A stretch of 64,000 nt of DNA, from positions 868,001 through 932,000 of the forward strand of contig NZ_CP072801.1 in assembly GCF_017901135.1 (NCBI RefSeq), in the 5' to 3' direction. Position 1 is the stretch's first letter, and every line of letters starts with the position of its first letter. This document shows positions 5,110-23,644 of this stretch, piece by piece. The notes beneath the pieces are model-generated. The model had not been told where the DNA came from. It did no database searches and was given only the letters and a program-made list of their open reading frames with translations. The DNA comes from Thiothrix litoralis (lineage in GTDB: Bacteria; Pseudomonadota; Gammaproteobacteria; Thiotrichales; Thiotrichaceae). The translations under genes were made by a program, and so were the position numbers.

Positions 5110-6221
<1,112 letters not shown>

Positions 6222-6234
6222 ACGGAGTAACCTT

Positions 6235-8622
6235 ATGAAAGTCAGTGAAAAATGGCTGCGTGAGTGGATTAATACGCCGCAGACGCTGGATGCCATTGCC
6301 GACAAACTCACCATGTCTGGCTGTGAAGTGGAATCCCGCGACCCGGTAGCGACCGCTTTTACCAGCATCGTGGTTGGCCATGTGCTGGAGCGTGAAAAAC
6401 ACCCCGACGCCGACAAGCTGAGCGTGTGCAAAGTGGATGGCGGGCAGGGCGAAATCCTGCAAATCGTTTGTGGTGCTAGCAATGTACGGGCTGGCCTGAA
6501 AGTGCCGTTGGCATTAATCGGCGCAGTGCTGCCATTACCCGACGGTGCGGATCTGAAGATCAAAAAGGGCAAGCTGCGTGGGATAGAATCCTTCGGCATG
6601 TTGTGTTCTTCCACCGAACTGGGCATGTCTGACAAGTCCGATGGCTTGCTGGAATTGCCGGAAGATGCGCCTGTCGGTGCGGACATCCGCGATTACCTCA
6701 AGCTCAACGATGAAGTCATCGAACTGGCCATCACCGCCAATCGTGGCGATTGCATGAGCATGATCGGCGTGGCGCGTGAAACCGCGCTGGTGATGGATGT
6801 GCCATTGAACGTGCCGGAAATCCCCGCACAGACGCCCCAACATACCGATACCTTCCCGGTTGATTTGCAGGCAACAGATGCTTGCCCACGTTACGTCGGG
6901 CGCATTATCCGCAATATCAACCCGCAAGCTACCACGCCGATCTGGATGCAGGAAAAGCTGCGCCGCGCGGGTATCCGTAGCATTTCCGCGACGGTGGATG
7001 TGACCAACTACGTGTTGCTGGAACTCGGTCAGCCGATGCACGCTTTCGACCTCGATACGCTGCAATCCGGCATTGTGGTGCGCTACGCCAAAGCTGGCGA
7101 AACCCTGAAAATGCTCGATGGACAAACCGCCACCTTGCGTGACGACACGCTGGTGATTGCCGATGCTGACAAAGCCGTAGCAATGGCAGGCATTATGGGC
7201 GGCGAGCCAACCTCGGTGACGGATGCTACCCGTAATGTATTTCTGGAAAGCGCTCATTTTCGCCCGCACAAAATCATGGGCAAGGCACGTAGCTATGGCC
7301 TGCAAACCGATTCTGCTGCCCGTTTCGAGCGTGGTGTCGACCCGGATATGCCGGTCAAGGCGATGGAACGTGCTACCCAACTGATCGTGGACATCTGTGG
7401 TGGGGAAGTGGGAACCGTGGTGGATACCCTTGCAGCCCCCAGCTTGCTGCAACGCAAAGCCATTTTGCTGCGCCCGCAACGCATCCGCCGCGTACTCGGT
7501 GTGACGATGGATGCAGCAACAGTCGAAGGCGTGCTGGCACGTCTGAACTGCGAATTCAGCCAGAGTGATGCCGGTTGGCAGGTGCAAGCACCTTTGGCAC
7601 GTTTCGATTTGAATATCGAAGAAGATTTGATCGAAGAGTTGGCGCGGGTACGTGGTTACGATGCGATCCCGGCGGAATTGCGTCCGCGTGCGCCGCGCAT
7701 TACCCAGCCCAGCGAAACGGCTGTCAAGCGTGAACATTTGCGGCAGTTATTGGTGGCGCGTGGTTATCAGGAAGCAGTGACCTTCAGTTTCGTTGACCCC
7801 AAAATGGAAGCGACGCTGGCACCAACCACCGAGAGCATTGCGTTGGCTAACCCGATTTCAGCCGATTTGGGCGTCATGCGCAGCACGCTGTGGTCAGGTT
7901 TATTGCGTTCGGTGGCTTATAACCTGAACCGCCAGCAAAACCGGGTGCGTTTGTTTGAGATCGGCCCAGCGTTTTTCCAAGGCGAAGACGGCAAGCCGCA
8001 GCAAAAAACCATGCTTTCTGGGGTATTGACCGGAAATCTTTACCCGGAACAGTGGGGACAGGTGAACCGATCCGTCGATTTTTACGACTTGAAAGGGGAT
8101 GTGGAAACCTTGCTGGCACAAGTGAGCGGCTCGCGCTTCCATTTTGCCCCGGTTGCCCATGCGGCATTGCACCCCGGTCAGTCAGCGGAAATCATGACGG
8201 ATAATGCGGTGGTTGGCTGGATGGGTATGTTGCATCCCCGGATCGAGGAACAGCTTGGTCTGGAACAACCGACTTACCTGTTTGAACTGGATATGGCGCT
8301 GTTGATGCAGCGGGCGCTGCCAAAGTATCAGGCGGTTTCCAAATTCCCAGCAATTCGTCGTGATCTGGCCTTGTTGGTCAGGGAAGATACGTTAGCGGTT
8401 GCTTTGGAAAATGCTGTGAAAAAAGCAGCAATTCCACAACTAATGTCTTATTATTTATTCGATGTCTACACGGGTAAAGGCATACAGGAAGGTCAAAAAA
8501 GCGTAGCTTTAAGCTTGATTTTGCAAGACTTTTCGCGCACGCTTGAGGACGCAGAAATCAATCGGATCGTCGACGCAGTGGTTGCCTCGCTTCAGGAAGA
8601 AGTCGGCGCAATTTTGCGTTAA
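6235..8622 (+). CDS. pheT: Phenylalanyl-tRNA synthetase beta subunit
   Basis: 795-residue beta subunit, the family's normal length. In order: tRNA-binding OB fold (VVGHVLEREKHPDADKLSVC), B3/B4 editing domain, B5 domain, inactive catalytic-like core (TFSFVDPKMEATL) and the C-terminal FDX-ACB anticodon-binding domain (YQAVSKFPAIRRDLALLVRE). ihfA follows 15 nt downstream, as in other gammaproteobacteria. Confidence 0.97.
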   Translation: MKVSEKWLREWINTPQTLDAIADKLTMSGCEVESRDPVATAFTSIVVGHVLEREKHPDADKLSVCKVDGGQGEILQIVCGASNVRAGLKVPLALIGAVLPLPDGADLKIKKGKLRGIESFGMLCSSTELGMSDKSDGLLELPEDAPVGADIRDYLKLNDEVIELAITANRGDCMSMIGVARETALVMDVPLNVPEIPAQTPQHTDTFPVDLQATDACPRYVGRIIRNINPQATTPIWMQEKLRRAGIRSISATVDVTNYVLLELGQPMHAFDLDTLQSGIVVRYAKAGETLKMLDGQTATLRDDTLVIADADKAVAMAGIMGGEPTSVTDATRNVFLESAHFRPHKIMGKARSYGLQTDSAARFERGVDPDMPVKAMERATQLIVDICGGEVGTVVDTLAAPSLLQRKAILLRPQRIRRVLGVTMDAATVEGVLARLNCEFSQSDAGWQVQAPLARFDLNIEEDLIEELARVRGYDAIPAELRPRAPRITQPSETAVKREHLRQLLVARGYQEAVTFSFVDPKMEATLAPTTESIALANPISADLGVMRSTLWSGLLRSVAYNLNRQQNRVRLFEIGPAFFQGEDGKPQQKTMLSGVLTGNLYPEQWGQVNRSVDFYDLKGDVETLLAQVSGSRFHFAPVAHAALHPGQSAEIMTDNAVVGWMGMLHPRIEEQLGLEQPTYLFELDMALLMQRALPKYQAVSKFPAIRRDLALLVREDTLAVALENAVKKAAIPQLMSYYLFDVYTGKGIQEGQKSVALSLILQDFSRTLEDAEINRIVDAVVASLQEEVGAILR

Positions 8623-8637
8623 ACAGGGAGAAAGTGC

Positions 8638-8946
8638 ATGACAACAACATTAACCAAAGCAGACATGGTTGAACATCTGTTTGAAGAATTGGGCTTGAAT
8701 AAGCGCGAAGCCAAGGATTTGGTCGAGATGTTTTTTGAAGAAGTCCGTGATGCCTTAGAAACAGGCAAGAACGTAAAATTATCTGGGTTTGGTAATTTTA
8801 TGTTGCGTGATAAAACCCAGCGTCCAGGGCGTAACCCCAAAACGGGCGAGGAAATTCCGGTAACAGCACGACGTGTGGTTACTTTCCGTCCGGGGCAAAA
8901 GCTTAAGCAACGGGTAGAGGAATATGGAAGCAACAACGCCCAATAG
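8638..8946 (+). CDS. ihfA: Integration host factor alpha subunit
   Basis: 102-residue DNA-bending protein of the HU/IHF family, active as heterodimer with IHF-beta. Diagnostic parts are [20 protein letters not shown] and the beta-arm region [19 protein letters not shown], which differentiates IHF-alpha from HU. The ATG is preceded by CAGGGAGAAA. The 3' end overlaps the following merR-like gene by 23 nt, a link conserved in many relatives. Confidence 0.96.
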
Positions 8947-9304
8947 CCAATTGCCACCCATTCCGAGCAAGCGCTACTTCACCATTGGTGAGGTCAGCGA
9001 CTTGTGCGGCGTGAAAACGCACGTATTGCGCTATTGGGAACAGGAGTTTCCTTCCCTCAAGCCGATGAAACGGCGGGGTAACCGCCGTTATTATCAGCGT
9101 GAAGATGTGTTGCTGATTCGTCAGATTCGCGCCTTGTTGTATGAACAGGGTTATACCATCAGTGGTGCGCGTCAGAAATTGCTGGACGAGGTGCATACAC
9201 CACCAGCAGCAGTATTGCCATTGGAGCCTATTGTGGTCAACGGACACGACGTTGCACCTTTGGTAGAAGAGCTGGAACGTATTTTGTATATCCTTAAATG
9301 CTGA
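8924..9304 (+). CDS. MerR-family transcriptional regulator
   Basis: 126-residue one-domain regulator. The winged helix-turn-helix spans about residues 18-85: [25 protein letters not shown] followed by [19 protein letters not shown], the classic MerR DNA-binding signature. The C-terminal part is short and has no metal-binding cysteines, so it is not a metal sensor of the MerR/CueR kind. It overlaps ihfA by 23 nt and is followed by tRNA-Pro, the usual arrangement. Its targets cannot be inferred. Confidence 0.88.
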
Positions 9305-9311
9305 TTTAAGC

Positions 9312-9340
9312 TTGAGCTTACCAGACGATTACGGTATGCT
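9312..9340 (+). promoter_or_regulatory. Promoter of tRNA-Pro
   Basis: TTGAGC (9312-9317), 17-nt spacer, TATGCT (9335-9340); the tRNA begins 15 nt further on. Confidence 0.6.
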
Positions 9341-9354
9341 CTCATCCCTTCGGT

Positions 9355-9431
9355 CGGGGCGTAGCGCAGCCTGGTAGCGCACCACACTGGGGGTGTGGGG
9401 GTCGTAGGTTCGAATCCTATCGTCCCGACCA
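9355..9431 (+). tRNA. tRNA-Pro(GGG)
   Basis: 77-nt cloverleaf with encoded CCA. Acceptor CGGGGCG pairs with CGTCCCG (one G-U). The anticodon arm CCACA-CTGGGGG-TGTGG gives anticodon GGG (proline). The T-arm contains GGTTCGAATCC. Confidence 0.95.
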
Positions 9432-9449
9432 ACTATTCTTTTCAAATCA

Positions 9450-10463
9450 ATGTTATTGGTTTTGCCAAACAAGTCCCACATTCATTTCTTCCTACCCGGT
9501 TTATTTCAGCCGCTCGCACTCTGGCGTAAAGATTTTGCCTTTCAGCCTGTCGCTGAAAACTTGTTGCGTTTGTGTGCTGGTGCCACTGTCGAGACCTTGC
9601 CTGTGCAAGGGCTAGAAAATACCTTGTTCCACCAAGCCGGACATCCCGCTGATACCGAACTTCCTTTTGCCTATTGCCGCTACTTACTCGACTTTGGCGT
9701 GCCACCACCGCAAGCCTTGCTGTGTGCTGACCCGGTATTGTTAAAAAGTGGGCAGGATAGCGTGGTCATGCAACCTAGCTTGCCGCACCTCACTGAGCAG
9801 GAAATGGCAACCTTGCTGACCTTGCTGAACAGCCATCTGGCAGAAGATGGTCTGCAACTGGTGGCAAAACACCCGCAACGCTGGTATTTGCTAGGTGAAA
9901 GGGTGCAGGGCACAACACCCTTGTGCACTGTGCCGCTCTCGCAAGCCCTCGGACAAAGCATTTTCGCGCTACTACCCCAAGGCGACAAACGCTACTGGCA
10001 TCGCTTGCTGAATGAAATCCAGATGCTGCTGCACACCAGTGAAATCCCCGCCGTCAACGCCCTGTGGCTGTGGGGGGCATCCAGTTCTTCACTTCCCTCT
10101 TGGCAAAAGGGAGGCTGGGGGGGATTTCTCGGCTCAAGCACAACCGCCGAAGTCATGGCTTCAGCCACTAACACCCCGTATCACCCCGTCACCACGTTCG
10201 CTGACTGTCAGGTCGACGCAGGCAACTACGCGATCATCCTTGAAGACTTGCACATCCCCAGCGTTACTGACGATCTGCACCATTGGGAACAAGCCCTCGC
10301 CGAGCTGGAAACGCACTGGTTTGCCCCAGCACTGGTGGGCATGAAATCGGGTAAGTTCGACATCAGCATTAGTGCTTGCGACGGGCGTTTGCTGCATTGC
10401 CAAGCATCACCCGCCTGGAAATTCTGGCAAACCCGTGCTGCGAATTGGGATCAGCTTATCTGA
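9450..10463 (+). CDS. Conserved hypothetical protein, RpfE/COG4255-like
   Basis: 337-residue protein that resembles the RpfE/COG4255 group, sometimes annotated as phosphoglycerate-mutase-like; function unknown. Visible features are an N-terminal FFLPGLFQP region, FAYCRYLLDFG, a central LVAKHPQRWYLLGE and a conserved-looking C-terminal half with ILEDLHIPS. Residues about 214-227 are encoded by a dispersed GC-rich repeat (10088-10129) inserted in frame; the peptide LPSWQKGGWGGFLGS comes from it. The repeat sits between the HPQRWYLLGE half and the C-terminal half, so the protein may tolerate it as a loop. It starts 18 nt after tRNA-Pro and ends overlapping xseA by 8 nt, converging on it. No clear ribosome binding site was seen. 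Confidence 0.55.
   Translation: MLLVLPNKSHIHFFLPGLFQPLALWRKDFAFQPVAENLLRLCAGATVETLPVQGLENTLFHQAGHPADTELPFAYCRYLLDFGVPPPQALLCADPVLLKSGQDSVVMQPSLPHLTEQEMATLLTLLNSHLAEDGLQLVAKHPQRWYLLGERVQGTTPLCTVPLSQALGQSIFALLPQGDKRYWHRLLNEIQMLLHTSEIPAVNALWLWGASSSSLPSWQKGGWGGFLGSSTTAEVMASATNTPYHPVTTFADCQVDAGNYAIILEDLHIPSVTDDLHHWEQALAELETHWFAPALVGMKSGKFDISISACDGRLLHCQASPAWKFWQTRAANWDQLI
10088..10129 (+). repeat. Dispersed GC-rich palindromic repeat inside a coding region
   Basis: Contains CTTCCCTCTTGG...AAAGGGAGG followed by CTGGGGGGGATTT. Read on the other strand it matches the repeat at 55752-55802 (AAATCCTCCCCCAGCCCCTCC then TTTTTCAAAGGAGGGG). The insertion keeps the reading frame of the host gene. Confidence 0.65.
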
Positions 10464-11658
10464 CGCTGGTGACAATGCTCTCGAAACGGCCATCCTTGAT
10501 TTGGGTGATAACCGTTTCGCCCAGCCGTAAGGTGTTGGTATTGCGTACCACTTGCCCAGACTCTGCCATGCGGGTAATGCCGTAACCCCGCTCCAGCACC
10601 GCAAGTGGGCTGAGTGCATGAAGTTTTCCCGCCTGAATTTGCAGCTTGTCATGTCGCCGCCCAAAGTAACGTTGGATAGCCGCTTGCAAACGCATCTCCA
10701 GTTCATCCAGCCGTTGAACTTTTTGTTGTAAGCGATTGGTAGGACGCTGGTTTTCAAGGCGCTGCCGTAAGCGACGCAGGTGTTCGCCCGCGAGTTGTAA
10801 ACGGCGTTGCTGGTTGCGCTGTAATTGGGAGAATAGCCGTTGAGTATGGGTTTGCAGCGCCGCCATATCCGGGCTGACCAATTCCGCTGCTGCTGATGGG
10901 GTAGGGGCGCGAAGATCGGCGACGAAATCGGCAATGGTGAAGTCGATTTCATGCCCGACCCCGCTGATGATCGGCAAAGAACAAGCGTGGATGGCATGAG
11001 CCACCACTTCCTCATTAAACGACCACAGGTCTTCGATCGAACCGCCGCCGCGCGTCAAAATCAGTACATCGCAACGTTGCTCGCGGTCAGCCTGGCGAAT
11101 GGCGTTAACAATCTGTTCCTTGGAGCCTTCGCCTTGTACTAGCACCGGGTAAATCATCACGGGAATTTGTGGGCAACGGCGTTTCAGTACATTGAGGATG
11201 TCGCGGATCGCCGCACCAGTAGGCGAGGTAATAACCCCAATACAGCGTGGGAAGGCGGGGAGTGGCTGTTTGTGTTCGCTGGAAAATAGACCTTGCGCGT
11301 GTAATTGGCGTTTAAGTGCCTCGAACTGGCGTTGTAATACGCCCACCCCGGTATCTTCCATATGCTCGATGATGAACTGGTATTCGCCGCGTGGTTCGTA
11401 AAGGCCGACTTTGCCGCGTACCAATACTTTCAGGCCATTTTTGGGGGCAAGCTTTAAGGTTGAGGCGCGTCCCTTGAACATGGCGCAACGCACTTGGGCA
11501 CTGGCATCTTTCAGGCTGAAGTATAAATGACCAGACGAGGCACGGATAAAGTTGGAGATTTCGCCTTCCACCCACAAGGCAGGGAAGCCTTGCGAGAGCA
11601 ACTGGCCAACTTCGGCGTTGAGTTGGGAAATACTGAGGATGATACGTTCTGTTTGCAT
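10456..11658 (-). CDS. xseA: Exodeoxyribonuclease VII large subunit
   Basis: Catalytic subunit of ExoVII, which degrades single-stranded DNA from both ends together with XseB. The OB-fold N-terminus (LWVEGEISNFIRASSGHLYF), then RCIGVITSPTGAAIRDIL, LTRGGGSIEDLWSFN and GVGHEIDFTIADFVADLRAPTPSAAAE are strongly diagnostic. I start it at ATG 11658 (MQTERIILSISQLN, 400 aa), because a terminator hairpin lies between 11672 and 11703; the longer frame to 11811 would run through it. It sits downstream of the SoxK-like gene on the same strand but is separated by that terminator. Confidence 0.96.
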   Translation of the reverse strand: MQTERIILSISQLNAEVGQLLSQGFPALWVEGEISNFIRASSGHLYFSLKDASAQVRCAMFKGRASTLKLAPKNGLKVLVRGKVGLYEPRGEYQFIIEHMEDTGVGVLQRQFEALKRQLHAQGLFSSEHKQPLPAFPRCIGVITSPTGAAIRDILNVLKRRCPQIPVMIYPVLVQGEGSKEQIVNAIRQADREQRCDVLILTRGGGSIEDLWSFNEEVVAHAIHACSLPIISGVGHEIDFTIADFVADLRAPTPSAAAELVSPDMAALQTHTQRLFSQLQRNQQRRLQLAGEHLRRLRQRLENQRPTNRLQQKVQRLDELEMRLQAAIQRYFGRRHDKLQIQAGKLHALSPLAVLERGYGITRMAESGQVVRNTNTLRLGETVITQIKDGRFESIVTSVR

Positions 11659-13773: not shown

Positions 13774-15351
13774 ATGACACAGAATATTCATGCGGATCGT
13801 GTATTGATCCTTGATTTCGGTTCGCAATATACCCAGTTGATTGCGCGGCGGGTGCGCGAAGTGGGCGTCTACTGCGAAATTTACCCGTGGGATGTGGAGG
13901 CGCAAGCCGTCGCCGACTTCGGTGCTAAGGGGATTATCCTTTCCGGTGGCCCTGAGTCTGTGACGGGCAATGAGTCGCCGAAAGCCCCGGATAATGTGTT
14001 CACGCTGGGCGTGCCGGTGCTGGGCATTTGCTACGGGATGCAAACCATGGCGGTGCAACTCGGTGGCACGGTGGAAACCTCTGACCACTGTGAATTTGGC
14101 TACGCGCAAGTGCGGGCGCGGGGTCACACCGAATTATTGCGCGAAATCGAAGACCACGTTTCCCCGGATGGCTTTGGCTTGCTGGACGTGTGGATGTCGC
14201 ACGGCGATAAAGTTATCACGTTGCCGGACGGTTTTACGCTGATGGCGAGCACCGATTCCGCGCCGATTGCGGGGATGGCGGATGAGTCACGGCATTTCTA
14301 CGCGCTGCAATTCCACCCGGAAGTGACCCATACCAAGCAAGGCAAGCGCATTTTGCAACGTTTTGTGCAGGGCATTTGCGGCTGCGCAGGTTTGTGGACG
14401 ACGGCGAATATCATCGACGAAAATATCCGTCTGGTGCGCGAAAAAGTCGGCTCGGATGAGGTGGTGCTAGGCTTGTCTGGCGGGGTGGATTCGTCGGTGG
14501 TTGCGGCGTTATTGCACAAGGCGATTGGTACGCAATTGACCTGCGTGTTCGTGGATACCGGCCTGTTGCGTTACCGCGAAGGCGATCAGGTGATGGCCAT
14601 GTTCGCCGAACACATGGGCGTGAAAGTCATCCGTGTGGATGCGGAGGAGCGTTTCCTGTCAGCCCTTGCGGGCGTCACTGACCCGGAGAAGAAGCGCAAA
14701 ATCATTGGCGGGTTGTTCATTGATATTTTCGATGAGGAGTCTTCCAAACTGACCAATGCGAAATGGTTGGCGCAAGGCACGATTTACCCGGATGTGATCG
14801 AGTCAGCGGGCGCGAAAACCGGCAAGGCGCATTTGATCAAGTCGCACCATAACGTGGGTGGCTTGCCGGAAAACATGAAGCTGGGGCTGGTCGAGCCGTT
14901 ACGCGAATTGTTCAAGGACGAAGTGCGCGTGATGGGTGTGGAGCTCGGTTTGCCGCCAGAAATGGTGTATCGCCACCCGTTCCCCGGCCCCGGTTTGGGT
15001 GTGCGGATTCTGGGCGAAGTGAAGAAGGAATACGCGGATTTGCTGCGTCTGGCTGACCACATCTTCATCGAAGAATTGCGCAAGCATGACTTGTATGACA
15101 AGACTTCGCAGGCATTTGCGGTGTTTTTGCCGGTGAAGTCGGTAGGTGTGACGGGCGATGGTCGCCGTTATGATTACGTGATTGCGTTGCGGGCGGTGGA
15201 GACGATTGACTTCATGACGGCGCGTTGGGCGCATTTGCCTTATGAGTTGCTGGATCTGCTTTCTCGTCGAATTATCAATGAAATACGCGGGGTTTCTCGG
15301 GTGGTTTATGATATTTCAGGGAAGCCACCGGCTACGATTGAGTGGGAGTGA
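13774..15351 (+). CDS. guaA: GMP synthase (glutamine-hydrolysing)
   Basis: 525-residue enzyme that aminates XMP to GMP. The N-terminal class I amidotransferase holds the nucleophile in GICYGMQ and the His-Glu pair in LQFHPEVTH. The ATP-pyrophosphatase domain has the PP-loop [15 protein letters not shown]. The C-terminal dimerisation domain ends [12 protein letters not shown] as in the family. ATG 13774 lies just behind a GC-rich repeat, and ribosome binding is provided by GGGAGCAAGAG near the repeat's end. Confidence 0.97.
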
Positions 15352-15401
15352 AGACCCTCACCCCCCAGCCCCCTCTCCCGGAGGTAGAGGGGGAGTAAGA
15401 G
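15351..15401 (+). repeat. Dispersed GC-rich repeat after guaA
   Basis: AAGACCCTCACCCCCCAGCC, then CTCTCCCGGAGGTAGAGGGG and AGTAAGAG. Nearly identical to the copy at 22641-22690. It begins at the guaA stop codon and may act as a transcript 3' end. The rest of 15402-15487 shows nothing recognisable. Confidence 0.75.
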
Positions 15402-15667: not shown

Positions 15668-15700
15668 TAAAAATAATTTTTACGGGCTGGAGAAATGAAG

Positions 15701-16024
15701 ATGGGGCAGAAACTTGAACTGGCAGCAGTGCTGGAAGCATTACGAGGAGAATTGAACCTTGCCAAGCGCGAAGGTGATGGGCATGACTTACGTTTTAATA
15801 TTGATAATGTGGAAGTGGAACTGCAAACCGTCGTTGAAAAAAAAGTGGCAGGTGAGGCAGGTGGGAAAGTCAGGTTTTGGGTATTGGATGCGGATACCAA
15901 AGCCAGTGGCGAGTACAAGGATGCTGTCACCCAAAAGATCAAGCTCACATTGAAAGTTGTGGATACCAGTAAACCAGCCGTAGATGGCAAGTCACCGTTG
16001 GCTCAGGTGGGTGGCGATAGCTAA
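15701..16024 (+). CDS. Trypco2-domain protein (trypsin-co-occurring domain 2)
   Basis: Small protein of about 107 residues. The order is a helix (LAAVLEALRGELNLAKREG), beta strands with LRFNIDNVEVELQTVV, GGKVRFWVLDADTKASGEY and a final QKIKLTLKVV strand, which is the pattern of the Trypco2 domain. That domain was named for co-occurring with trypsin-like proteases in NTP-dependent conflict systems; its biochemical role is unknown, perhaps adaptor or substrate. ATG 15701 has GGAG 8 nt upstream; ATG 15695 is only 2 nt from it. Its stop overlaps the protease start (TAATG), so the two are translationally coupled. Confidence 0.8.
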   Translation: MGQKLELAAVLEALRGELNLAKREGDGHDLRFNIDNVEVELQTVVEKKVAGEAGGKVRFWVLDADTKASGEYKDAVTQKIKLTLKVVDTSKPAVDGKSPLAQVGGDS

Positions 16025-17532
16025 TGAACCCTTACCCGATCGTCAAAATCACCGTATTTCGGACTGATCAGGATAAACATGGGAAGCAGCGGGAAAGGAC
16101 GGGAACTGGATATGTTATTGCTGATGGCCTGATTCTTACCGCTCATCATGTCGTTGAGTTTGCGGAGCGGGATAAGAGTCAGCCTATTCAGTTGGAATGG
16201 ACAAAACTATCCAAGGAAAACTCTCCATGTAAGGCACAAATGACGGATGTGATTTGGGCTAAGCATGATGTAGCTGTGTTGGCGTGTGTTATGCCTGATT
16301 TGCTAAAGGCGCATCTTCTGGATTTACCGAAACTGGCGGTAAGCAAGGTGGCTAGTTGTAAGCGTTGGGAGAGTGCGGGCTACCCCAAAATTAACCAGTC
16401 TCAACTCAAAGATGCCACGGGTGAGTTTGGGGTTGATTTGAGTGATCCGACTTTCAATCTCACGTTGGCAGATACTTACGGTCGAGATCAAGTTCCGAAA
16501 GAGTTGGTTGATACTGGGTGGGGCGGGATGTCAGGTGCACCTGTGTTCAGTCTGGAGAGTGGGCAGCTACAGGCTGTGATCACCGTGCATAACTTATGGA
16601 TGGAAAAGCAGTTACAGGCGGTTTCTATTCCTTATTTGTTGGCAGACAAGGATTTGGGTTTTCGTCAGGCGGTAGGGTTGGATGATAACGCCGTCGCCAT
16701 CCAGCAATTTTTTGATGGACAAAAACAGCAAATTCTCGAATTGCTGTGTGACATGAGGCAGGGCAAGCTATTTCAGGCGTTGGCGGCAAAATTACCGATA
16801 CCGCAGCCAAACATTACGCCGGATAGTGTGTATGAAAAACTGTTTGCGCTTTTCGACAAGGATTGTTTGGCGTTGTTTGATTGGCTGTTGCAAACCAGTT
16901 CCAGTGTTCTTAAGCAGGATATCAGCAAGGATACCTTGGAAAATGTCCGAACATTGTTTTGCCTGTTTGCCAGCCTGATGGCCTCTACCAGCTTGGTTGC
17001 CCGACAAAGTTACATCAAGTTGTCGGTCTATTCAAAAATGGCTTCCGAGCTTCATCTTGCCCCGCTGTATGAGACTAACCCTGATTTTACGACGGCTGAG
17101 GATGGTGAGTTGAAAGGAAGGTATTCGATAGATGCCTCTGTTTTTACTCGTGAAATAGGTTGGGAACAAGATGATTTCAAAAATGAGGCTACCAAGATCA
17201 TTTTCAAGGGGGTTAATGGCAAGGATGCACCCAAGGTGGTCAATGCCATTGAACTATGGAAGCTGAATGAGAAAATCAAGCAACGTCAGAATAGGAATTT
17301 GAACCAGTTACATCGTTTTGAGTTGAATCGTAGCGATGACGCATTGACAGGTAATCCCTTGAGCAATCTGTCTTATTGTCAGGCATTGAATGCAGGTGAC
17401 TGTTTGCCCGATTTGCCCATTATTCATTACGGCGAAGTGGATATGGATGCAACTTTGAAATTGGAACTGGCTTTGAGTGCCAAAATGGAAGATCTGTTTA
17501 CCATCCTGCAACAACACGGGTATAGCGCATGA
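16024..17532 (+). CDS. Trypsin-like serine protease with long C-terminal extension
   Basis: 502 residues, no signal peptide, so probably cytoplasmic. The N-terminal about 210 residues form an S1-type protease with an apparently intact triad: His42 in LTAHHVVE, Asp82 in KHDVAVL and Ser170 in GWGGMSGAPVF. The remaining 290 residues are mostly helical, contain QQFFDGQKQQILELLCDM and have no fold I recognise; in such systems this region typically couples to an effector-associated or regulatory module. The gene overlaps the Trypco2 gene by 1 nt and the MoxR gene by 4 nt (ATGA), so all are produced together. Inference: a protease activated by the partner ATPase or sensor that cleaves a cellular or Trypco2 target. 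Confidence 0.85.
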   Translation: MNPYPIVKITVFRTDQDKHGKQRERTGTGYVIADGLILTAHHVVEFAERDKSQPIQLEWTKLSKENSPCKAQMTDVIWAKHDVAVLACVMPDLLKAHLLDLPKLAVSKVASCKRWESAGYPKINQSQLKDATGEFGVDLSDPTFNLTLADTYGRDQVPKELVDTGWGGMSGAPVFSLESGQLQAVITVHNLWMEKQLQAVSIPYLLADKDLGFRQAVGLDDNAVAIQQFFDGQKQQILELLCDMRQGKLFQALAAKLPIPQPNITPDSVYEKLFALFDKDCLALFDWLLQTSSSVLKQDISKDTLENVRTLFCLFASLMASTSLVARQSYIKLSVYSKMASELHLAPLYETNPDFTTAEDGELKGRYSIDASVFTREIGWEQDDFKNEATKIIFKGVNGKDAPKVVNAIELWKLNEKIKQRQNRNLNQLHRFELNRSDDALTGNPLSNLSYCQALNAGDCLPDLPIIHYGEVDMDATLKLELALSAKMEDLFTILQQHGYSA

Positions 17533-18494: not shown

Positions 18495-21400
18495 ATGCAG
18501 CCCACCAGCCAGACCAGCCGTGCTGACCTGTTACGCTGGATGCGGCGTTGTCATACGCCCGCTGACAAACAACTGGCAGCACAGATACTGGGCTATGAAT
18601 GGTTAGAGCCGCAAGCTGACGTAAACCTCAAGATTGCTATTGGTGGCGGAGGTAAGAGCGATTCCAAGCCTGATTCACAAGATGATGAGGCGCTGCATCC
18701 GCAACTAGGGAAAGATGACGAACCCGCTGCAATAACGCGCCCACCCGAAGCGTTCTATGCCCTCAAACACCGCGAACAATACGCTGATCCTGATACCCCG
18801 GACGATGATTTACCCGATTGTTTACGCGGTGTCGAGCCGCTGTCAGCAGCAGATTTACGCCCGCTTGAACAGGGCGAGCCGCTAGCGCATCAGCCACTTG
18901 TGCCGCAACAGCGGTTAGTGCCTTTTTTGCGCCAAGCCTTGACCTACCCCTTGGGGCAAAAGCTGGATGTTCCCCGATTGGTGCAGCAAGTTGCCCGCTT
19001 GCAAGCCTTGCAGCGTATCCCGCGTCGTTCAAAAGTGTTACCCGCTGGACGGGTGTATGTATTGCTGGATTTGAATAAACGCCTGTTACCGTTTTGGCAA
19101 GATGCGCATGATTTGTGTGATTTGCTCACCCGTAAACAGGGCAAAAATGGTTTGGACATTCGCGTATTGGAAGATCAGCCGGGTGGGCGTTATTACGATT
19201 GGTTTGATCAGCAACAAGCCGTGAAAGCGTGGCAACCCTTGAAAGCCCCCAGTGTGGTGCTGGTGATCAGCGATCTGGGTCAACTCAGTGCGCAAGGCAG
19301 TGTAGTGTGCCAAGGTTGGTTGCGCTTTGCCCAGCAATTAGCGCGGCAAGGCATCCGCCCGCTGGTGTTAAGCCCGGTGTCACCTGCACAGCAATACGCG
19401 CCTTTTACAGCAGTGCTGGATCAAATACCGTGGGGGAAGCTGAGTCGTTTTCAGCCGCAAAAGCCTAATTCACAACAGCAAGAACATGCCAGCCATGTGC
19501 AGCGGGTGTTGGGTTTGTTGTCGGTAGCGGTGCATGTTGAGCCGGAATTGTTGCGGGCTATTTTGGGGTGTTTGCCTGCGATTCAGGCGGATAGTGGCGT
19601 GGAAGCAGCGGTGTATCTGCACTCGGATGTGGTGTGGGGCTATACCGCGATGACCTTGCGAGCAGAAAAGCGGGCGGCGTATCAGGCACTATTCCGGCAA
19701 GAGCCAGTCAGTTTGCAGCGGCAGGTGTTGGCACTGATTCGCCAGCAGCATATCGGGCAGTTTCCGGCAGTGTGGGCGGAAACGGTGTTAAATACCAAAC
19801 CGCTGACCGCGTTTGCGTTGGAAGAGGCCGCGTGGGCAGAGCAATTCATGGTGCGGTTTACGCGCAGTTTTGCGGGGCAGGGCGGGCATGAGGGGATGGC
19901 GCAGTTTGCGCAGCGGCATTTGCAGCGGTTGGGTAAAGATGCTGCGGATAAGGCATTTTATCGCGATAGTTACGCTAATGCCTTGCAGGGGTTGGCATAC
20001 CATGAGCAGTTGCGTGATGGCGGGGAGGTACCAGCCGCATATGACGCGGATGCAGTGTTGGCGGTAGTGCGGCAGCGGGTCGAGCCAAGGCGTTATGGGT
20101 TGATACAGCGGGGTGAATATTTAGAAGTTCGGGAAACCAATCTTGAACCGACGGCTTTAGTCACATGGGCGCGTTTGGCTGAGTTTGAAATGCGTCATGA
20201 CACGCTAATGATTCAGGCAGAACAGGCTTCTCGGTTCCGGTTACAAGACGTGGGGCAGGGGGTGAGAATTTATCATCTGCAAGGTCAGGCGGTAACGCTG
20301 GATACGGGTTTGGAAAAGCTGGTGATAACGCCGTTGGCCAAACCCAGTTGGGCATCTGACATTATCCGCACCCCGACAGGTTTGGAAGCGGTGATGCCGT
20401 TCGCAGGCAAGTCTTACCGATTCTTTTGGGGGGCAGGTGAATATTCACGTTCTGGTAATGGGTTTGCTGGTCAATGGGTATGCAATGCTAATGAGGGTGT
20501 TGGGTTTGATGAGTATGGTCTCTACGCCGATCTCAACATAAAAGGGATTACCCAGCGCTTCCGCTGGATCGAACCCGGCTCCTTCCTCATGGGTTCCCTA
20601 CCAGACGAAGCAGAGCGTGAACCCCATGAATCACTAAAAGGTACAGAAACCCAACATCAAGTTACCCTAACCCAAGGCTTCTGGCTGGCAGACGCCACCG
20701 TTACCCAAGCCTTGTGGCAAGCGGTCATGGGCAATAACCCCAGCCACTTCAACGGAGCGGTCACAATAGACGGCAAATCCATTTACGTGGACGGTGCTAA
20801 TCACCCAGTCGAACAAGTCAATTGGGAAGACACACAAAAATTCCTTACCCAACTTCAAGCGCTTATTCCCGGACTGGATGCCCGTTTGCCGACGGATGCG
20901 CAATGGGAGTACGCCTGCCGTGCGGGAACTTCCAGCGTATTTTCCTTCGGCGATAATATCACCCCAGAACAGGTGAATTACGACGGAAATTATCCCTACG
21001 CCAACGGCAAAAAAGGTCTATATAGACAGAAGACCGTTCCCGTCAAATCCCTTCCAGCCAATCTGTGGGGTTTGTATGAAATGCACGGCAACGTGTGGGA
21101 ATGGTGTCAGGATTGGTGGCAACAGGAAATGTCGGCGGAGCCGACAGTAGACCCGGAGGGTCTTGAAGCGGGCGTTGAGCGCGTCGTTCGCGGCGGTTCG
21201 TGGGACGGCAGCGGCGGGGACGTGCGTTCTGCCATCCGTGGCAGGTACGATCCCGCTGGCCGTGGCCACGACGTTGGCTTCCGGCTTGCCCTAGGTCTTG
21301 AGCTCAGGCCAGACCAGCAGGGCGGCGGAGCCGTAACACAGGAAAGAGCGGACGACGGGGACGCGGGCAGACGTGGCGCGGGCGACACGGCAGACCGTGG

Positions 21401-21590
21401 CAGCGTCGGGAGCGGCGGTTTGGCGGTGCCGACCCATGATGTGCTTTCCAGTAAAGAAATGAATGAATGGCTGGAAAGCCAGCGTCCACAAGGGGGGCTG
21501 AGTGTGGATGACATAGACCAACCCACCCCAGCAGAGCGTTTTGGCGAAGTAGTTAAAGGCTTGACGAATTTATTCAGGAAGAAAAAATGA
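18495..21590 (+). CDS. Giant vWA-like / FGE-sulfatase (C-type-lectin fold) protein with DGR-type variable region
   Basis: 1031 residues. Residues 1-170 are charged linker. Around 185-320 a vWA-like Rossmann unit is suggested by VYVLLDLNKR and VVLVISDLGQL; the MIDAS DxSxS is degenerate (DLNKR). About 320-640 is helical and not recognised. Residues about 675-935 are an FGE-sulfatase domain: QRFRWIEPGSFLMGS, GFWLADATVTQALWQAVMG, DAQWEYACRAGT, GLYEMHGNVWEWCQDWW. It ends with RVVRGGSW...DVGFRLAL, the variable region of DGR targets (21171-21333). A low-complexity Gly/Asp/Arg tail of about 95 residues follows, derived from sequence that is non-coding behind the second FGE gene. Inference: ligand sensor plus MoxR partner of a conflict system. 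Confidence 0.8.
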   Translation: MQPTSQTSRADLLRWMRRCHTPADKQLAAQILGYEWLEPQADVNLKIAIGGGGKSDSKPDSQDDEALHPQLGKDDEPAAITRPPEAFYALKHREQYADPDTPDDDLPDCLRGVEPLSAADLRPLEQGEPLAHQPLVPQQRLVPFLRQALTYPLGQKLDVPRLVQQVARLQALQRIPRRSKVLPAGRVYVLLDLNKRLLPFWQDAHDLCDLLTRKQGKNGLDIRVLEDQPGGRYYDWFDQQQAVKAWQPLKAPSVVLVISDLGQLSAQGSVVCQGWLRFAQQLARQGIRPLVLSPVSPAQQYAPFTAVLDQIPWGKLSRFQPQKPNSQQQEHASHVQRVLGLLSVAVHVEPELLRAILGCLPAIQADSGVEAAVYLHSDVVWGYTAMTLRAEKRAAYQALFRQEPVSLQRQVLALIRQQHIGQFPAVWAETVLNTKPLTAFALEEAAWAEQFMVRFTRSFAGQGGHEGMAQFAQRHLQRLGKDAADKAFYRDSYANALQGLAYHEQLRDGGEVPAAYDADAVLAVVRQRVEPRRYGLIQRGEYLEVRETNLEPTALVTWARLAEFEMRHDTLMIQAEQASRFRLQDVGQGVRIYHLQGQAVTLDTGLEKLVITPLAKPSWASDIIRTPTGLEAVMPFAGKSYRFFWGAGEYSRSGNGFAGQWVCNANEGVGFDEYGLYADLNIKGITQRFRWIEPGSFLMGSLPDEAEREPHESLKGTETQHQVTLTQGFWLADATVTQALWQAVMGNNPSHFNGAVTIDGKSIYVDGANHPVEQVNWEDTQKFLTQLQALIPGLDARLPTDAQWEYACRAGTSSVFSFGDNITPEQVNYDGNYPYANGKKGLYRQKTVPVKSLPANLWGLYEMHGNVWEWCQDWWQQEMSAEPTVDPEGLEAGVERVVRGGSWDGSGGDVRSAIRGRYDPAGRGHDVGFRLALGLELRPDQQGGGAVTQERADDGDAGRRGAGDTADRGSVGSGGLAVPTHDVLSSKEMNEWLESQRPQGGLSVDDIDQPTPAERFGEVVKGLTNLFRKKK
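21171..21333 (+). other. DGR-type variable region 1 (VR1)
   Basis: Aligns without gaps over 163 nt to 23450-23612. There are 16 substitutions; they fall in codons such as GGC/AGC, AGC/ATC, GGC/CTC, TAC/GAC, GGC/TAC and CAC/AAC, where the third base stays C. Invariant codons between them are identical at every base. This is what mutation of template adenines (AAC codons) would produce. The GC-rich CAGCAGGGCGGCGGAGCCG closes it like an initiation-of-mutagenic-homing end. Confidence 0.8.
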
Positions 21591-21628
21591 AGCACAAGTT
21601 TTTCATTATCTGAGCCGTTTTTTTTAAA

Positions 21629-21895
21629 TTAGGCTGCCTTTTTTAGAGATTGCAGCATTGCCTCTCGCAACAATTGGTTCAGCCGCGTCTGATACCCAGC
21701 CCCATCAGCTTGCAACCACGCCAAAATATCAGCATCAATCCTAACCGTAACCTGCTTCTTCACAGGGCGATAAAACTTGCCAACTTCGGCATTTTTCCAC
21801 ATCTCCGCTGTTGTTTTGGGGATGTCGCTAAAGTCGATGTCCTCATCTGGCATATTCACCAGATGTTCCCATTCCTTATCTGCCTCGGTTTTCAT
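21629..21895 (-). CDS. brnA: BrnA-family antitoxin
   Basis: 88-residue ribbon-helix-helix antitoxin. The middle holds the BrnA pattern FYRPVKKQVTVRIDADILAW followed by YQTRLNQLLREAM, the DNA-binding and dimerisation part. Its start overlaps the end of the upstream brnT remnant, the normal brnTA arrangement. BrnA usually neutralises the RNase toxin BrnT and represses the operon. Since the toxin here is internally deleted, BrnA may be an orphan regulator. Confidence 0.8.
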   Translation of the reverse strand: MKTEADKEWEHLVNMPDEDIDFSDIPKTTAEMWKNAEVGKFYRPVKKQVTVRIDADILAWLQADGAGYQTRLNQLLREAMLQSLKKAA

Positions 21896-22031
21896 AAAAC
21901 TTCCTCTCGTGTTTGGTGGCTTTTCGCGCTGATATAATGTGAATGTGGGTTACTTCGTCTTCAAAATCAACATGATGCTTGCGCAGATTGATTTCTGCTT
22001 TGGCATCACGCCAACTGAAGTGATACTCCAT
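21876..22031 (-). pseudogene. brnT: BrnT toxin gene with internal in-frame deletion
   Basis: Encodes only 51 residues: MEYHFSWRDAKAEINLRKH at the start, then DFEDEVTHIHIISARKATK and HERKFYEN. BrnT toxins are about 90 residues; the start and the C-terminal ISARKAT(K/R)xER(K/R)xYE motif are present, but the central strands are missing between DFEDEV and THIHIISAR. The frame stays open, so a short product could be made but should be inactive. It is read into brnA with a 20-nt overlap. It is the second gene of a toxin-antitoxin pair within the accessory island. Confidence 0.7.
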
Positions 22032-22249
22032 CACTTAATCCTTACAAAAGTGTAGTTACATAATACGCTGGTGCAAGTGGCAATGGAAGCCGCCTTGGCG
22101 GTATGATAACACTGGGTGATAAATGTGCGTTTTGCCATCCGTAATAACAGATCGTCATCCTGCCTTGCGGTTCGCCGTAAGCAAAAAGCAAGGTCAGCGG
22201 TGCGCTAGTAATGGGGTGGATGCCCCGTGAACGCTCACCGCATGACCGA

Positions 22250-22295
22250 AGACCCTCACCCCAACCCCTCTCCCGGAGGTAGAGGGGCTAAGAAG
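22250..22295 (+). repeat. Dispersed GC-rich repeat upstream of the DUF559 gene
   Basis: AAGACCCTCACCCCAACCCC then TCTCCCGGAGGTAGAGGGGC. Lies directly before the start of the next gene. The stretch 22037-22249 between the brnT remnant and this copy holds no ORF; CCTTGC/GCAAGG arms near 22164-22195 could form a hairpin but I can assign no function. Confidence 0.7.
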
Positions 22296-22304
22296 TAGAA
22301 GGCC

Positions 22305-22754
22305 ATGACGACAACAAACCGTGAGAAATCCCGTCTGCTTCGGCAACAGCAAACACCGGCAGAGCAATGTTTATGGCAGCAATTGCGGAATCGCCAATTG
22401 GATGGTTACAAGTTTCATCGCCAGTATGCTATCGGTCACTACATTGTGGATTTTGTCTGCCGGACGGAAAAGCTCATTGTGGAATTGGATGGTATCCACC
22501 ATGTAGAAGCTGATCAGGCAGAATATGACCAAATCCGTACCCAATTTCTTACTGCGCAGAACTTCCGAGTTCTGCGTTTCTGGAATACTGAAATCGAAGA
22601 ATCCATGCCAAGCGTTTTAGATAAAATCCACCTAGTGTTGAAGACCCTCACCCCCCAGCCCCCTCTCCCGGAGGTAGAGGGGGAGCAAGAATCCACATCT
22701 TCTCTTAGCCCCTCTACCTCTGGGAGAGGGGTTGGGGTGAGGGTCTTCTCATGA
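22305..22754 (+). CDS. DUF559 endonuclease-like protein (Vsr/PD-(D/E)xK type) with repeat-encoded tail
   Basis: 149 residues. Residues 1-112 match DUF559 proteins: QQTPAEQCLWQQLRNRQLDG, then YIVDFVCRTEKLIVELDG with the Asp and Glu of a PD-(D/E)xK nuclease, and FLTAQNFRVLRFWNTEI. The last 37 residues (TLTPQPPLPEVEGEQ and SPSTSGRGVGVRVF) are encoded by an inverted pair of dispersed repeats (22641-22748), so they are probably not part of the ancestral protein. The stop overlaps the start of the FGE gene (ATGA), implying co-expression. It might be the effector partnered with the variable FGE protein, or just a neighbour. Confidence 0.7.
   Translation: MTTTNREKSRLLRQQQTPAEQCLWQQLRNRQLDGYKFHRQYAIGHYIVDFVCRTEKLIVELDGIHHVEADQAEYDQIRTQFLTAQNFRVLRFWNTEIEESMPSVLDKIHLVLKTLTPQPPLPEVEGEQESTSSLSPSTSGRGVGVRVFS
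22641..22748. repeat. Inverted pair of dispersed GC-rich repeats
   Basis: Copy 1 (22641-22690) starts GAAGACCCTCACCCCCCAGC and contains CTCCCGGAGGTAGAGGGGGA. Copy 2 (22700-22748) is inverted: TAGCCCCTCTACCTCTGGGA, then GGGGTTGGGGTGAGGGTCTT. The pair extends the upstream ORF and places it against the next start codon. Confidence 0.8.
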
Positions 22755-23644
22755 CCTACCGCAACCACCTCTCCCCACCCACCTTCCCCTACGCTTGGGC
22801 ATCCGACTGGGGCGAAGACCGCTATGGCCTATGGCAAGCCTTCACCTACCAAGACGTGCGCCACGCCTTCCGCTGGATTCCACCCGGCACTTTCCAGATG
22901 GGTTCACCCGACGGGAGTGGAGAAGAAGGCGCTGAAGAAGGTCGTTGGGAAGATGAAACTTTGCACCATGTCACCCTCAGCAAAGGCTTCTGGCTCGCCG
23001 AAACCACTGTCACCCAAGTCTTGTGGCAAACCATCATGGGTGCAAACCCCAGCAGCTTCAAAGGCGATAACCGTCCTGTCGAACAAGTAAGCTGGGACGA
23101 TACCCAAACCTTCCTCGACAAACTCAACCAAATCCACCCCGATTTAAGCGTGCGCCTGCCATGGGAAGCTGAATGGGAATACGCCTGCCGCGCCGGAACT
23201 CAAACCCCGTTCAACTTCGGCGAAGAATTGACGCTGGACAAAGTAAATTATTCGGGCAAATGGAGCGAGTCTGGCTATGATGATAAAGCTAAAAAATCAA
23301 CGGTTGACGTAAAAACCTACCCCTGCAACGCTTGGGGCTTATACCAAATGCACGGTAACGTGTGGGAATGGTGTCAGGATGTGTGGCAAGAAAAATTAAC
23401 GGCTTCGCCGGTTATAGACCCGGAGGGTATCGCCGGAGGCGATAAAGCAGGCGTTGAGCGCGTCGTTCGCGGCGGTTCGTGGGACAGCATCGGCGGGGGC
23501 GTGCGTTCTGCCATCCGTCTCAGGGACGATCCCGCTTACCGTGACAACGGCATTGGCTTCCGGCTTGCCCTAGGTCTTGAGCTACAGCCAGCCCAGCAGG
23601 GCGGCGGAGCCGCAGGGCGCGGTGCGCCCCAAGGGAAAAAGTGA
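22751..23644 (+). CDS. FGE-sulfatase domain protein with DGR-type variable region
   Basis: 297-residue protein consisting essentially of one formylglycine-generating-enzyme/C-type-lectin-fold domain. It starts with the linker YAWASDWGEDRYGLWQAF seen in such sensors, then FRWIPPGTFQMGSP, GFWLAETTVTQVLWQTIMG, EAEWEYACRAGT and GLYQMHGNVWEWCQDVW. The C-terminus RVVRGGSWDSIGGGVRSAIR and NGIGFRLAL is the variable-region part. It is related to the C-terminal domain of the 1031-residue protein. No signal peptide, so cytoplasmic. Being coupled to the DUF559 gene, it may sense a ligand for that nuclease (inference). Confidence 0.82.
   Translation: MTYRNHLSPPTFPYAWASDWGEDRYGLWQAFTYQDVRHAFRWIPPGTFQMGSPDGSGEEGAEEGRWEDETLHHVTLSKGFWLAETTVTQVLWQTIMGANPSSFKGDNRPVEQVSWDDTQTFLDKLNQIHPDLSVRLPWEAEWEYACRAGTQTPFNFGEELTLDKVNYSGKWSESGYDDKAKKSTVDVKTYPCNAWGLYQMHGNVWEWCQDVWQEKLTASPVIDPEGIAGGDKAGVERVVRGGSWDSIGGGVRSAIRLRDDPAYRDNGIGFRLALGLELQPAQQGGGAAGRGAPQGKK
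23450..23612 (+). other. DGR-type variable region 2 (VR2)
   Basis: Second member of the pair described at 21171-21333. Homology between the two loci also continues downstream in diverged form: GAGCGGACG, GACGCGGGCAG and AGACCGTGGCAG recur here after the stop codon and there inside the coding tail. Confidence 0.8.

What the first reader, a model, noticed from the sequence alone, without database searches (positions are those of the whole stretch)
21171..23612. Two DGR-type variable regions in FGE-domain proteins without a reverse transcriptase in the window
Segments 21171-21333 and 23450-23612 align over 163 nt without gaps. They differ at 16 bases: 15 at first or second codon positions, one at a third. 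Varied codons end in C (e.g. GGC/CTC, GGC/TAC, TAC/GAC, CAC/AAC) or T; intervening codons are identical including synonymous positions. That is what adenine-specific mutagenesis of AAC template codons would give. Established knowledge: FGE/C-type-lectin-fold proteins are the typical targets of diversity-generating retroelements. I read no RT ORF and no AAC-rich template here, so both would be remote targets acted on in trans.
Basis: partly seen in the sequence, partly recalled or inferred. Interest (0 to 1): 0.95.

Follow-up and report, generated by a model that had tools for sequence, protein, structure and literature searches.

The report
Orphaned hypermutation targets, mutator cut out
A Thiothrix bacterium carries three protein segments bearing the adenine-only marks of a DNA-rewriting retroelement of which only scraps remain between two of them, so they were likely rewritten by a copy elsewhere, predicted to sit on a plasmid.

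Summary
A template (TR) on a T. fructosivorans plasmid contig fits all three: 15-19 of 32-33 template adenines changed against 1-2 of 100 other bases. The assembly has no DGR reverse transcriptase (RT) or intact template; its one RT is a retron type XIII. Yet the VRs were not born remote. The plasmid locus has the same order (MoxR, long FGE, HRDC, RT, TR, short FGE), and the window keeps an HRDC stub, the RT's last codons, 23 nt of TR and its flank, with brnTA-like genes between. T. subterranea shares that scar, so the loss is old; but the genome's three VRs differ from one another at only 0-1 of 100 non-adenine template sites. A metagenome protein nearly identical outside the VR differs at 12 of 19 template-adenine codons and 0 of 25 others. 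I infer rewriting in trans after loss of the local core, probably from a plasmid; imported alleles or a frozen fossil remain possible.

The parts
15350..15398 (+). direct repeat (GAAGACCCTCACCCC... type) after guaA; its partner is 22640-22688
   Evidence: T. lacustris DSM 21227 has one repeat unit where this genome has the 7.3 kb between the two repeats
15695..16024 (+). Trypco2 adaptor protein
   Evidence: Pfam PF19631, 74.8 bits
16024..17532 (+). trypsin-like peptidase protein (predicted effector)
   Evidence: Pfam PF13365, 33.3 bits
17529..18494 (+). MoxR-like AAA ATPase (AAA_5; the MoxR label is by analogy with the literature)
   Evidence: Pfam PF07728, 55.4 bits
18495..21590 (+). target 1: 1031-aa protein, long N-terminal extension plus FGE (C-type-lectin-fold) domain
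   Evidence: Pfam PF03781, 165.5 bits, residues 691-932
21166..21297 (+). VR1, template-covered part
   Evidence: aligned to G004 TR: 19/32 template A changed, 1/100 other bases
21320..21333 (+). GC-rich inverted element just downstream of VR1 (GGGCGGCGGAGCCG), predicted homing hairpin
   Evidence: kept in 12 of 16 VRs shown, lost or broken in 4; DNA folding z only -1.2
21587..21610 (+). stub of the DGR accessory gene (HRDC protein, MKHKFFII then stop), overlapping target 1's stop codon as in the intact locus
21629..22030 (-). BrnA antitoxin gene (21629-21898) and remnant of a brnT-like gene occupying the space of HRDC and RT
   Evidence: BrnA PF14384, 62.3 bits; brnT remnant named by eye from the translation
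22093..22119 (+). last codons and stop of the lost RT plus leader to the TR (CCTTGGCGGTATGATAACACTGGGTGA)
   Evidence: 25/27 identical to the G011 cassette; local alignment 46.0 vs shuffle maximum 26.0 (0 of 300)
22122..22144 (+). fossil of the template repeat
   Evidence: 21/23 identical to G004 TR
22148..22248 (+). DNA that lies just downstream of the TR in the intact locus
   Evidence: 94/101 identical to the G004 plasmid contig; found independently by genome search, 93 nt at 92%
22248..22754 (+). DUF559 gene (22305-22754) inside 46-nt inverted repeats (22248-22293 / 22703-22748)
22751..23644 (+). target 2: 297-aa FGE-domain protein
   Evidence: Pfam PF03781, 154.2 bits
23444..23576 (+). 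VR2, template-covered part
   Evidence: 15/33 template A changed, 1/100 others (one search gives 15/32)
23599..23612 (+). GC-rich inverted element downstream of VR2, predicted homing hairpin
   Evidence: folding z -0.6

Best explanation
These are the variable regions of three FGE-domain proteins bearing DGR adenine mutagenesis, two of them on either side of the remains of their own lost core (HRDC-RT-TR), and they were likely rewritten after that loss by a DGR acting in trans, predicted to lie on a plasmid. Inferred: that this genome's VRs were copied in trans after the loss; that the copying DGR is of the pTfr446 kind; that it sits on a plasmid not in this assembly. Proposed function, by homology and literature only: antigen-sensor domains of MoxR/trypsin and TIR conflict systems.
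For: DGR writing: own VRs vs G004 TR, 19/32, 15/33 and 18/32 template A changed against 1, 1 and 2 of 100 other bases; the one non-A change common to all three is C to G at TR position 131, near the 3' end, where TR and VR of known DGRs also differ (IMH*/IMH, recalled). Lost core: same gene order as G004 plus HRDC stub, RT end, TR fossil and TR flank. Old loss: own and G012 share the HRDC-stub junction, brnA block and RT-end block at 89-92%; own vs G012 third-position identity is 0.73 in MoxR, 0.74 in the long-FGE N-terminus, 0.72 in guaA. Freshness: own1 vs own2 differ at 0/100 non-A sites, own3 from them at 1/100, own from G004 VRs at 0-2/100. If VRs were frozen since a loss of that age, 0 changes at 40 non-A third positions has p = 3e-6. 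Natural variation: P0005 vs own, 1/161 aa upstream, 12/19 template-A codons, 0/25 other VR codons, 1/22 downstream. Trans across contigs in T. fructosivorans: C6 VR vs the plasmid-contig TR, A 20/32, others 2/100. Second loss: G002, G008 and G014 share HRDC stub | DUF559 element, yet G002/G014 VR1s differ at 16/31 A and 4/101 other sites.
Against: No RT or template was found that could be the trans source; G008's VR backbone also found no template in its genome, and VR DNA had no match in the plasmid and phage collections. The FGE domain next to VR1 is less similar to G012 (0.68-0.85 per 150 nt) than the upstream part (0.77-0.93), so units may have been swapped by recombination, which weakens the dating for VR1. 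G013 keeps a second, 58-nt RT-tail scrap on the other side of its brnA block and is probably a recombinant, so it does not date the junction. P0005's upstream DNA is unread; its strain could hold an intact core. The p = 3e-6 uses coding third-position divergence; with the roughly 10% divergence of the scar itself my own arithmetic gives about 0.015. G012's VRs, 16/99 and 21/100 from this template, may be decayed or written from other templates. The downstream hairpin folds are not significant (z -0.6 to -1.4). The T. lacustris VR carries 6/100 non-A changes, less fresh.
Confidence: 0.6

Rival explanations
1. Recent fossil: the cis core wrote all three VRs, was lost recently in this lineage, and the VRs have been frozen since; nothing acts in trans.
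For: No RT or intact template found in the assembly; scar with TR fossil and flank of the same TR type; an orphan VR does look frozen elsewhere (G012 vs G013 second VR: A 2/32, non-A 5/100).
Against: The stub/brnA/RT-end scar is shared with G012 at 89-92%, so the loss is old, while own1/own2 differ at 0/100 non-A sites; P0005 shows VR change between near-identical genes.
Confidence: 0.2
2. Import: FGE/VR units already diversified in other Thiothrix cells were brought in by homologous recombination after the core was lost.
For: Identity profiles are mosaic: the FGE domain of target 1 is less like G012 than the part upstream; G002 and G014 are 96% identical upstream but 85% across FGE to FGE2; FGE2 of own vs T. 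lacustris has third-position identity 0.82 against 0.97 in guaA.
Against: Three VRs in three unlike gene contexts share the non-A template sites (0-1/100 differences), while the DNA before VR1 and VR2 is 71% identical; the P0005 change stops at the VR (1/161 and 1/22 outside). Three separate imports would be needed.
Confidence: 0.15
3. Not a DGR: paralogous FGE genes with gene conversion and diversifying selection at binding-site codons.
For: Changes fall at codon positions 1/2, as positive selection would give.
Against: A template with A at 21 of the 22 variable sites sits beside an RT with IGSLTSQ and YMDD motifs in a syntenic locus; selection does not predict almost no change at the other 100 bases, synonymous ones included.
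Confidence: 0.01
4. Assembly error: the RT-TR core exists but was collapsed or misassembled.
For: Repeats flank the region.
Against: The same stub/brnA/RT-end junctions are in G012; one contig, completeness 100.
Confidence: 0.02

Closest known systems
DGR-diversified MoxR conflict loci of Thiohalocapsa PB-PSB1 and relatives, clade 5A type (Dore et al. 2024, PMC10907252; abstract, sections 8 and 13 and some passages read)
   Same: [quoted passage not shown] Trypco and trypsin-like neighbours; that genome also has incomplete DGR loci, targets matching a TR elsewhere, and targets without a perfectly matching TR
   Different: there, intact variants of two broken loci were seen in long reads; here the loss is shared between species, recognisable template and RT scraps remain, and the matching template was found only on a plasmid contig of another species; 'Thiothrix' and 'HRDC' do not occur in that main text
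Treponema denticola DGR with HRDC accessory gene, and isolates lacking the core (PMC4891356; passages read)
   Same: HRDC accessory overlapping the RT; target genes kept as remnants in isolates without RT and TR; one remote VR matching another isolate's TR type
   Different: the passages read treat these as leftovers; a comparison of VR freshness with scar age was not met in them
VMAP ternary conflict systems (Kaur et al. 2020, PMC7159879; passages read)
   Same: MoxR ATPase, peptidase and FGS/FGE domains linked with DGRs
   Different: no vWA or VMAP domain was called by Pfam in the window proteins
BPP-1 phage DGR target site (PMC3240598; abstract and passages read)
   Same: GC-rich inverted element shortly downstream of the VR
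   Different: BPP-1 has an 8-bp stem with a 4-nt loop; here only a short GC-rich inverted element was seen and folding was not significant

Membership tests
Diversity-generating retroelement (complete system) | VR differing from a TR at template adenines only | tested here: met
   15-19 of 32-33 A vs 1-2 of 100 others, all three VRs, against a TR in another genome
Diversity-generating retroelement (complete system) | DGR-type reverse transcriptase in the genome | tested here: not met
   RVT_1: one hit, retron XIII; DGR RT profile: none at E<=1e-5
Diversity-generating retroelement (complete system) | template repeat in the genome | tested here: not met
   only the three VRs, the TR flank and a 23-nt fossil
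Diversity-generating retroelement (complete system) | accessory gene (Avd or HRDC) | tested here: inconclusive
   only an 8-codon HRDC stub at the locus; no genome-wide HRDC or Avd search was run
DGR target (VR-bearing gene) | C-type-lectin-fold / FGE domain with the VR near the C-terminus | tested here: met
   PF03781 in all three; best solved match of target 2 by sequence is T. denticola TvpA, 2y3c; target 1 continues about 97 aa past its VR
DGR target (VR-bearing gene) | 3' initiation site with a TR/VR difference | tested here: met
   CTAGCTC in TR, CTAGGTC in the three own VRs; that this is the IMH is by analogy
DGR target (VR-bearing gene) | hairpin downstream of the VR | tested here: inconclusive
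   conserved GC-rich inverted element, folding z -0.6 to -1.4 in five sequences
DGR target (VR-bearing gene) | VR diversity in natural populations | tested here: inconclusive
   one near-identical metagenome protein with a different VR (P0005); no reads available
VMAP/MoxR ternary conflict system | MoxR ATPase plus peptidase and adaptor | tested here: met
   AAA_5, Trypsin_2, Trypco2; the MoxR assignment is by analogy
VMAP/MoxR ternary conflict system | vWA and VMAP domains | tested here: not met
   neither called by Pfam in the window proteins; clade 5A targets lack vWA too (PMC10907252, section 13)
VMAP/MoxR ternary conflict system | anti-invader function | not testable with these tools
   needs experiment

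The most novel reading that the evidence does not exclude
Thiothrix separates receptor from mutator: immune-sensor genes stay on the chromosome, have shed their own DGR core at least twice, and are rewritten in trans by mutators on plasmids that come, go and cross species, so that hypermutation is a communal, horizontally shared function.
Probability: 0.35. Interest if true: 0.8.

Novelty: new variant of a known kind. Interest (0 to 1): 0.62.

Why it matters
DGRs are usually found by their RT, so targets without one are missed. Here the targets were found first, scraps of their core lie between them, and relatives show the core lost with at least two different junctions (stub | brnA in own and G012; stub | DUF559 element in G002, G008 and G014), plus one RT with its catalytic core deleted (G011), while targets were kept. 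This makes two open questions testable: does a DGR on one replicon rewrite targets on another, and is loss of the mutator a way to fix a good receptor? Fresh orphan VRs (own, G002, G014) and one that looks frozen (second VR of G012/G013) give natural cases for both outcomes.

Tried and rejected
Retron RT at C1:1618718 as the DGR RT: rejected, RT_XIII 595 bits with a WGR_XIII partner. VR DNA in plasmid and phage collections: no match at E<=1e-5. DGR RT in viral contigs: 8 loci, 26-34% identity, no useful source. Template for the G008 backbone in G008/G002/G014: only VRs and weaker matches, no template recognised. Protein search with target 1's FGE region (120 listed): only P0181 (84% over the region, 76% overall) was compared. 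Of the 120 listed for target 2, 7 were aligned and 6 counted; P0003 covers only 4 VR codons, and P0023 was left out of the count because it is out of frame in the VR. RT protein search: P0241 is 95% identical to the G004 RT on a 2840-bp contig; no hit could be tied to this genome's contigs. Not every locus was tested. One search gave wrong values for minus-strand loci and is replaced; one search's rows G4_3 and G14 were misoriented for the same reason and were not used. No structure was predicted. Literature: no paper held both 'diversity-generating retroelement' and 'Thiothrix', none held it with 'pseudogene', 'template repeat' and 'deletion'; subscription papers and preprints are not covered.
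Full report
WHAT WAS CHECKED. The window lies at C1:868001-932000 of a one-contig, 4,284,843-bp genome of the genus Thiothrix, judged by named relatives. A genome search with VR2 returned both window copies and a third, C1:432104-432267, at 87%, in a TIR-FGE protein. The other 16 matches of that search were short (14-25 nt, E >= 1.2).

NO MUTATOR FOUND AT HOME. The only RVT_1 match in the genome is an RT that scores 595 bits to retron RT_XIII, next to a WGR_XIII partner. A profile of five DGR RTs gives no own match at E<=1e-5, while 7 of the 16 genus genomes searched (own included) have matches above 140 bits (G004, G007-G012). A template search gives the three VRs plus one 93-nt stretch, 92% identical, that is not a VR; that stretch proved to be the key.

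THE TEMPLATE. Against this 133-nt template the own VRs differ at 19/32, 15/33 and 18/32 adenines and at 1, 1 and 2 of 100 other bases; 21 of 22 sites variable among the three are template adenines. G004's VR on the 1.94-Mb contig C6 also matches this template (A 20/32, others 2/100); it lies in a gene resembling the own TIR-FGE gene (76% over 906 nt). So in that species a template on the plasmid contig explains a VR on another contig.

THE SCAR. Between the window's two targets the same order is kept, but HRDC, RT and most of TR are gone. What remains: an HRDC start (MKHKFFII, stop) overlapping target 1's stop codon; the last RT codons with stop and leader (22093-22119, 25/27 to G011); 23 nt of template (22122-22144, 21/23); and the DNA that follows the template in G004 (22148-22248, 94/101). 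Local alignments to the intact loci of G009, G004 and G011 score 71, 50 and 42 on the left (shuffle maxima 39, 31.5, 39.5) and 38.5, 45.5 and 49 on the right (37, 37.5, 35.5); the RT-end core alone scores 35, 27 and 46 (maxima 25, 23.5, 26 of 300 shuffles). BrnA and a brnT remnant fill the gap; a DUF559 gene in inverted repeats lies between the flank and target 2.

AGE OF THE LOSS. G013 shares the brnA block (90%) and the right block (76%) but not the stub; its ATPase and long FGE are of another type, and it keeps a 58-nt RT-tail scrap on the left of brnA, so I take it for a recombinant and date by G012 alone. MoxR and the long-FGE N-terminus of own and G012 have third-position identity 0.73-0.74, close to guaA (0.72): the loss predates the split of these alleles. 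Yet own1 and own2 differ at 0/100 non-A sites, own3 from them at 1/100, and own VRs from G004's at 0-2/100, but from the G012/G013 VRs at 17-21 of 99-100. The second VR of G012 and G013 looks frozen: 2/32 A sites and 5/100 others differ. If own VRs had been frozen since a loss that old, 0 changes at 40 non-A third positions has p = 3e-6 at a rate of 0.27; at the roughly 10% divergence of the scar itself, my arithmetic gives about 0.015. Hence I favour rewriting after the loss.

STRAIN-LEVEL VARIATION. P0005, a metagenome protein, matches target 2 with 1/161 differences before the VR and 1/22 after it, but differs at 12/19 template-A codons and 0/25 other VR codons. Of the other five counted, P0001, P0002, P0004 and P0021 are more distant (24-53 differences in 176-231 residues upstream) and differ at 11-13 of 19 template-A codons and 0-2 of 25 others; P0003 covers only four VR codons.

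OTHER LOSSES. Nine loci of this cassette family were examined: HRDC, RT and TR present in G004 and G009; RT residues 198-294, which hold both motifs, missing in G011; no RT beyond scraps in own, G002, G008, G012, G013 and G014. G002, G008 and G014 share another junction, HRDC stub then DUF559 element. G014 and G008 are 96% identical to G002 over 3.0 and 1.7 kb upstream, but G002 and G014 VR1s differ at 16/31 A and 4/101 other sites, and the two G008 VRs share a further backbone (A 16/30, others 1/101) for which no template was found in that genome. The stretch from FGE to FGE2 is only 85% identical between G002 and G014, so recombination plays a part there too. Of the 16 VRs whose downstream DNA was printed, 12 keep a GGCGGCGGAGCCG element (own 1-3, G4 1-3, G2 1-2, G14 1-2, G8 1-2; one substitution each in G4_1 and G4_3), and 4 do not (G12_1, G12_2, G13_2, G5). 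The 12 are those close to a template or, in G008, to each other. I read the element as a predicted homing signal; folding alone does not prove it, and the VRs of G001, G006, G007, G009 and G011 were not looked at for it.

AGAINST. The locus is recombinogenic: the FGE domain of target 1 is less like G012 than the part upstream, FGE2 of own and T. lacustris differs far more than guaA does, and T. lacustris looks like a recombination product between direct repeats flanking the locus. Import of ready-made VRs is therefore a live rival. No trans source was found.

KNOWN OR NEW. The locus type matches the clade 5A architecture of Dore et al. (PMC10907252; abstract, sections 8 and 13 and passages read), who also saw targets without a matching TR, and T. 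denticola isolates with targets but no core are described (PMC4891356; passages read). The fossil template, a shared scar that is older than the VRs appear, and a plasmid-contig template matching a target on another contig were not met in the passages looked at (searches). I call it a new variant of a known kind.

Noticed in passing
L002 (G000:C1:1609000-1628900), 5826-10879 (-): The genome's only RVT_1 match is a retron type XIII RT with its WGR partner.
   Followed up: partly
window 15350-15398 and 22640-22688; L060:9850-9962: T. lacustris DSM 21227 has guaA directly followed by the short FGE gene and one repeat unit: it looks as if 7.3 kb were lost by recombination between direct repeats.
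   Followed up: partly
L259:8111-11044 (-): In G013 the long-FGE gene's N-terminus is fused to uracil-DNA-glycosylase-like sequence (named by eye) and VR1 is gone; a 58-nt RT-tail scrap lies beside brnA.
   Followed up: partly
window 15695-17532 vs L149:12400-14217: Trypco2 and trypsin are only 36% and 31% identical to G012 while MoxR next door is 90%: effector genes appear swapped as a module.
   Followed up: no
P0003: A metagenome homologue of target 2 ends where the VR begins, as assemblies often break at hypervariable sites.
   Followed up: no
L141:7503-8291 (-): G011's DGR RT carries an in-frame deletion of its catalytic core while HRDC, TR and both targets remain.
   Followed up: partly
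window 22248-22754: DUF559 gene within 46-nt inverted repeats; the repeat core occurs at 9 exact places in the genome, and related elements sit at the deletion junction in G002, G008 and G014.
   Followed up: partly
window 21298-21590: Target 1 reads on for about 97 aa beyond its VR, unlike the usual C-terminal VR; the metagenome protein P0181 has a similar extension.
   Followed up: no
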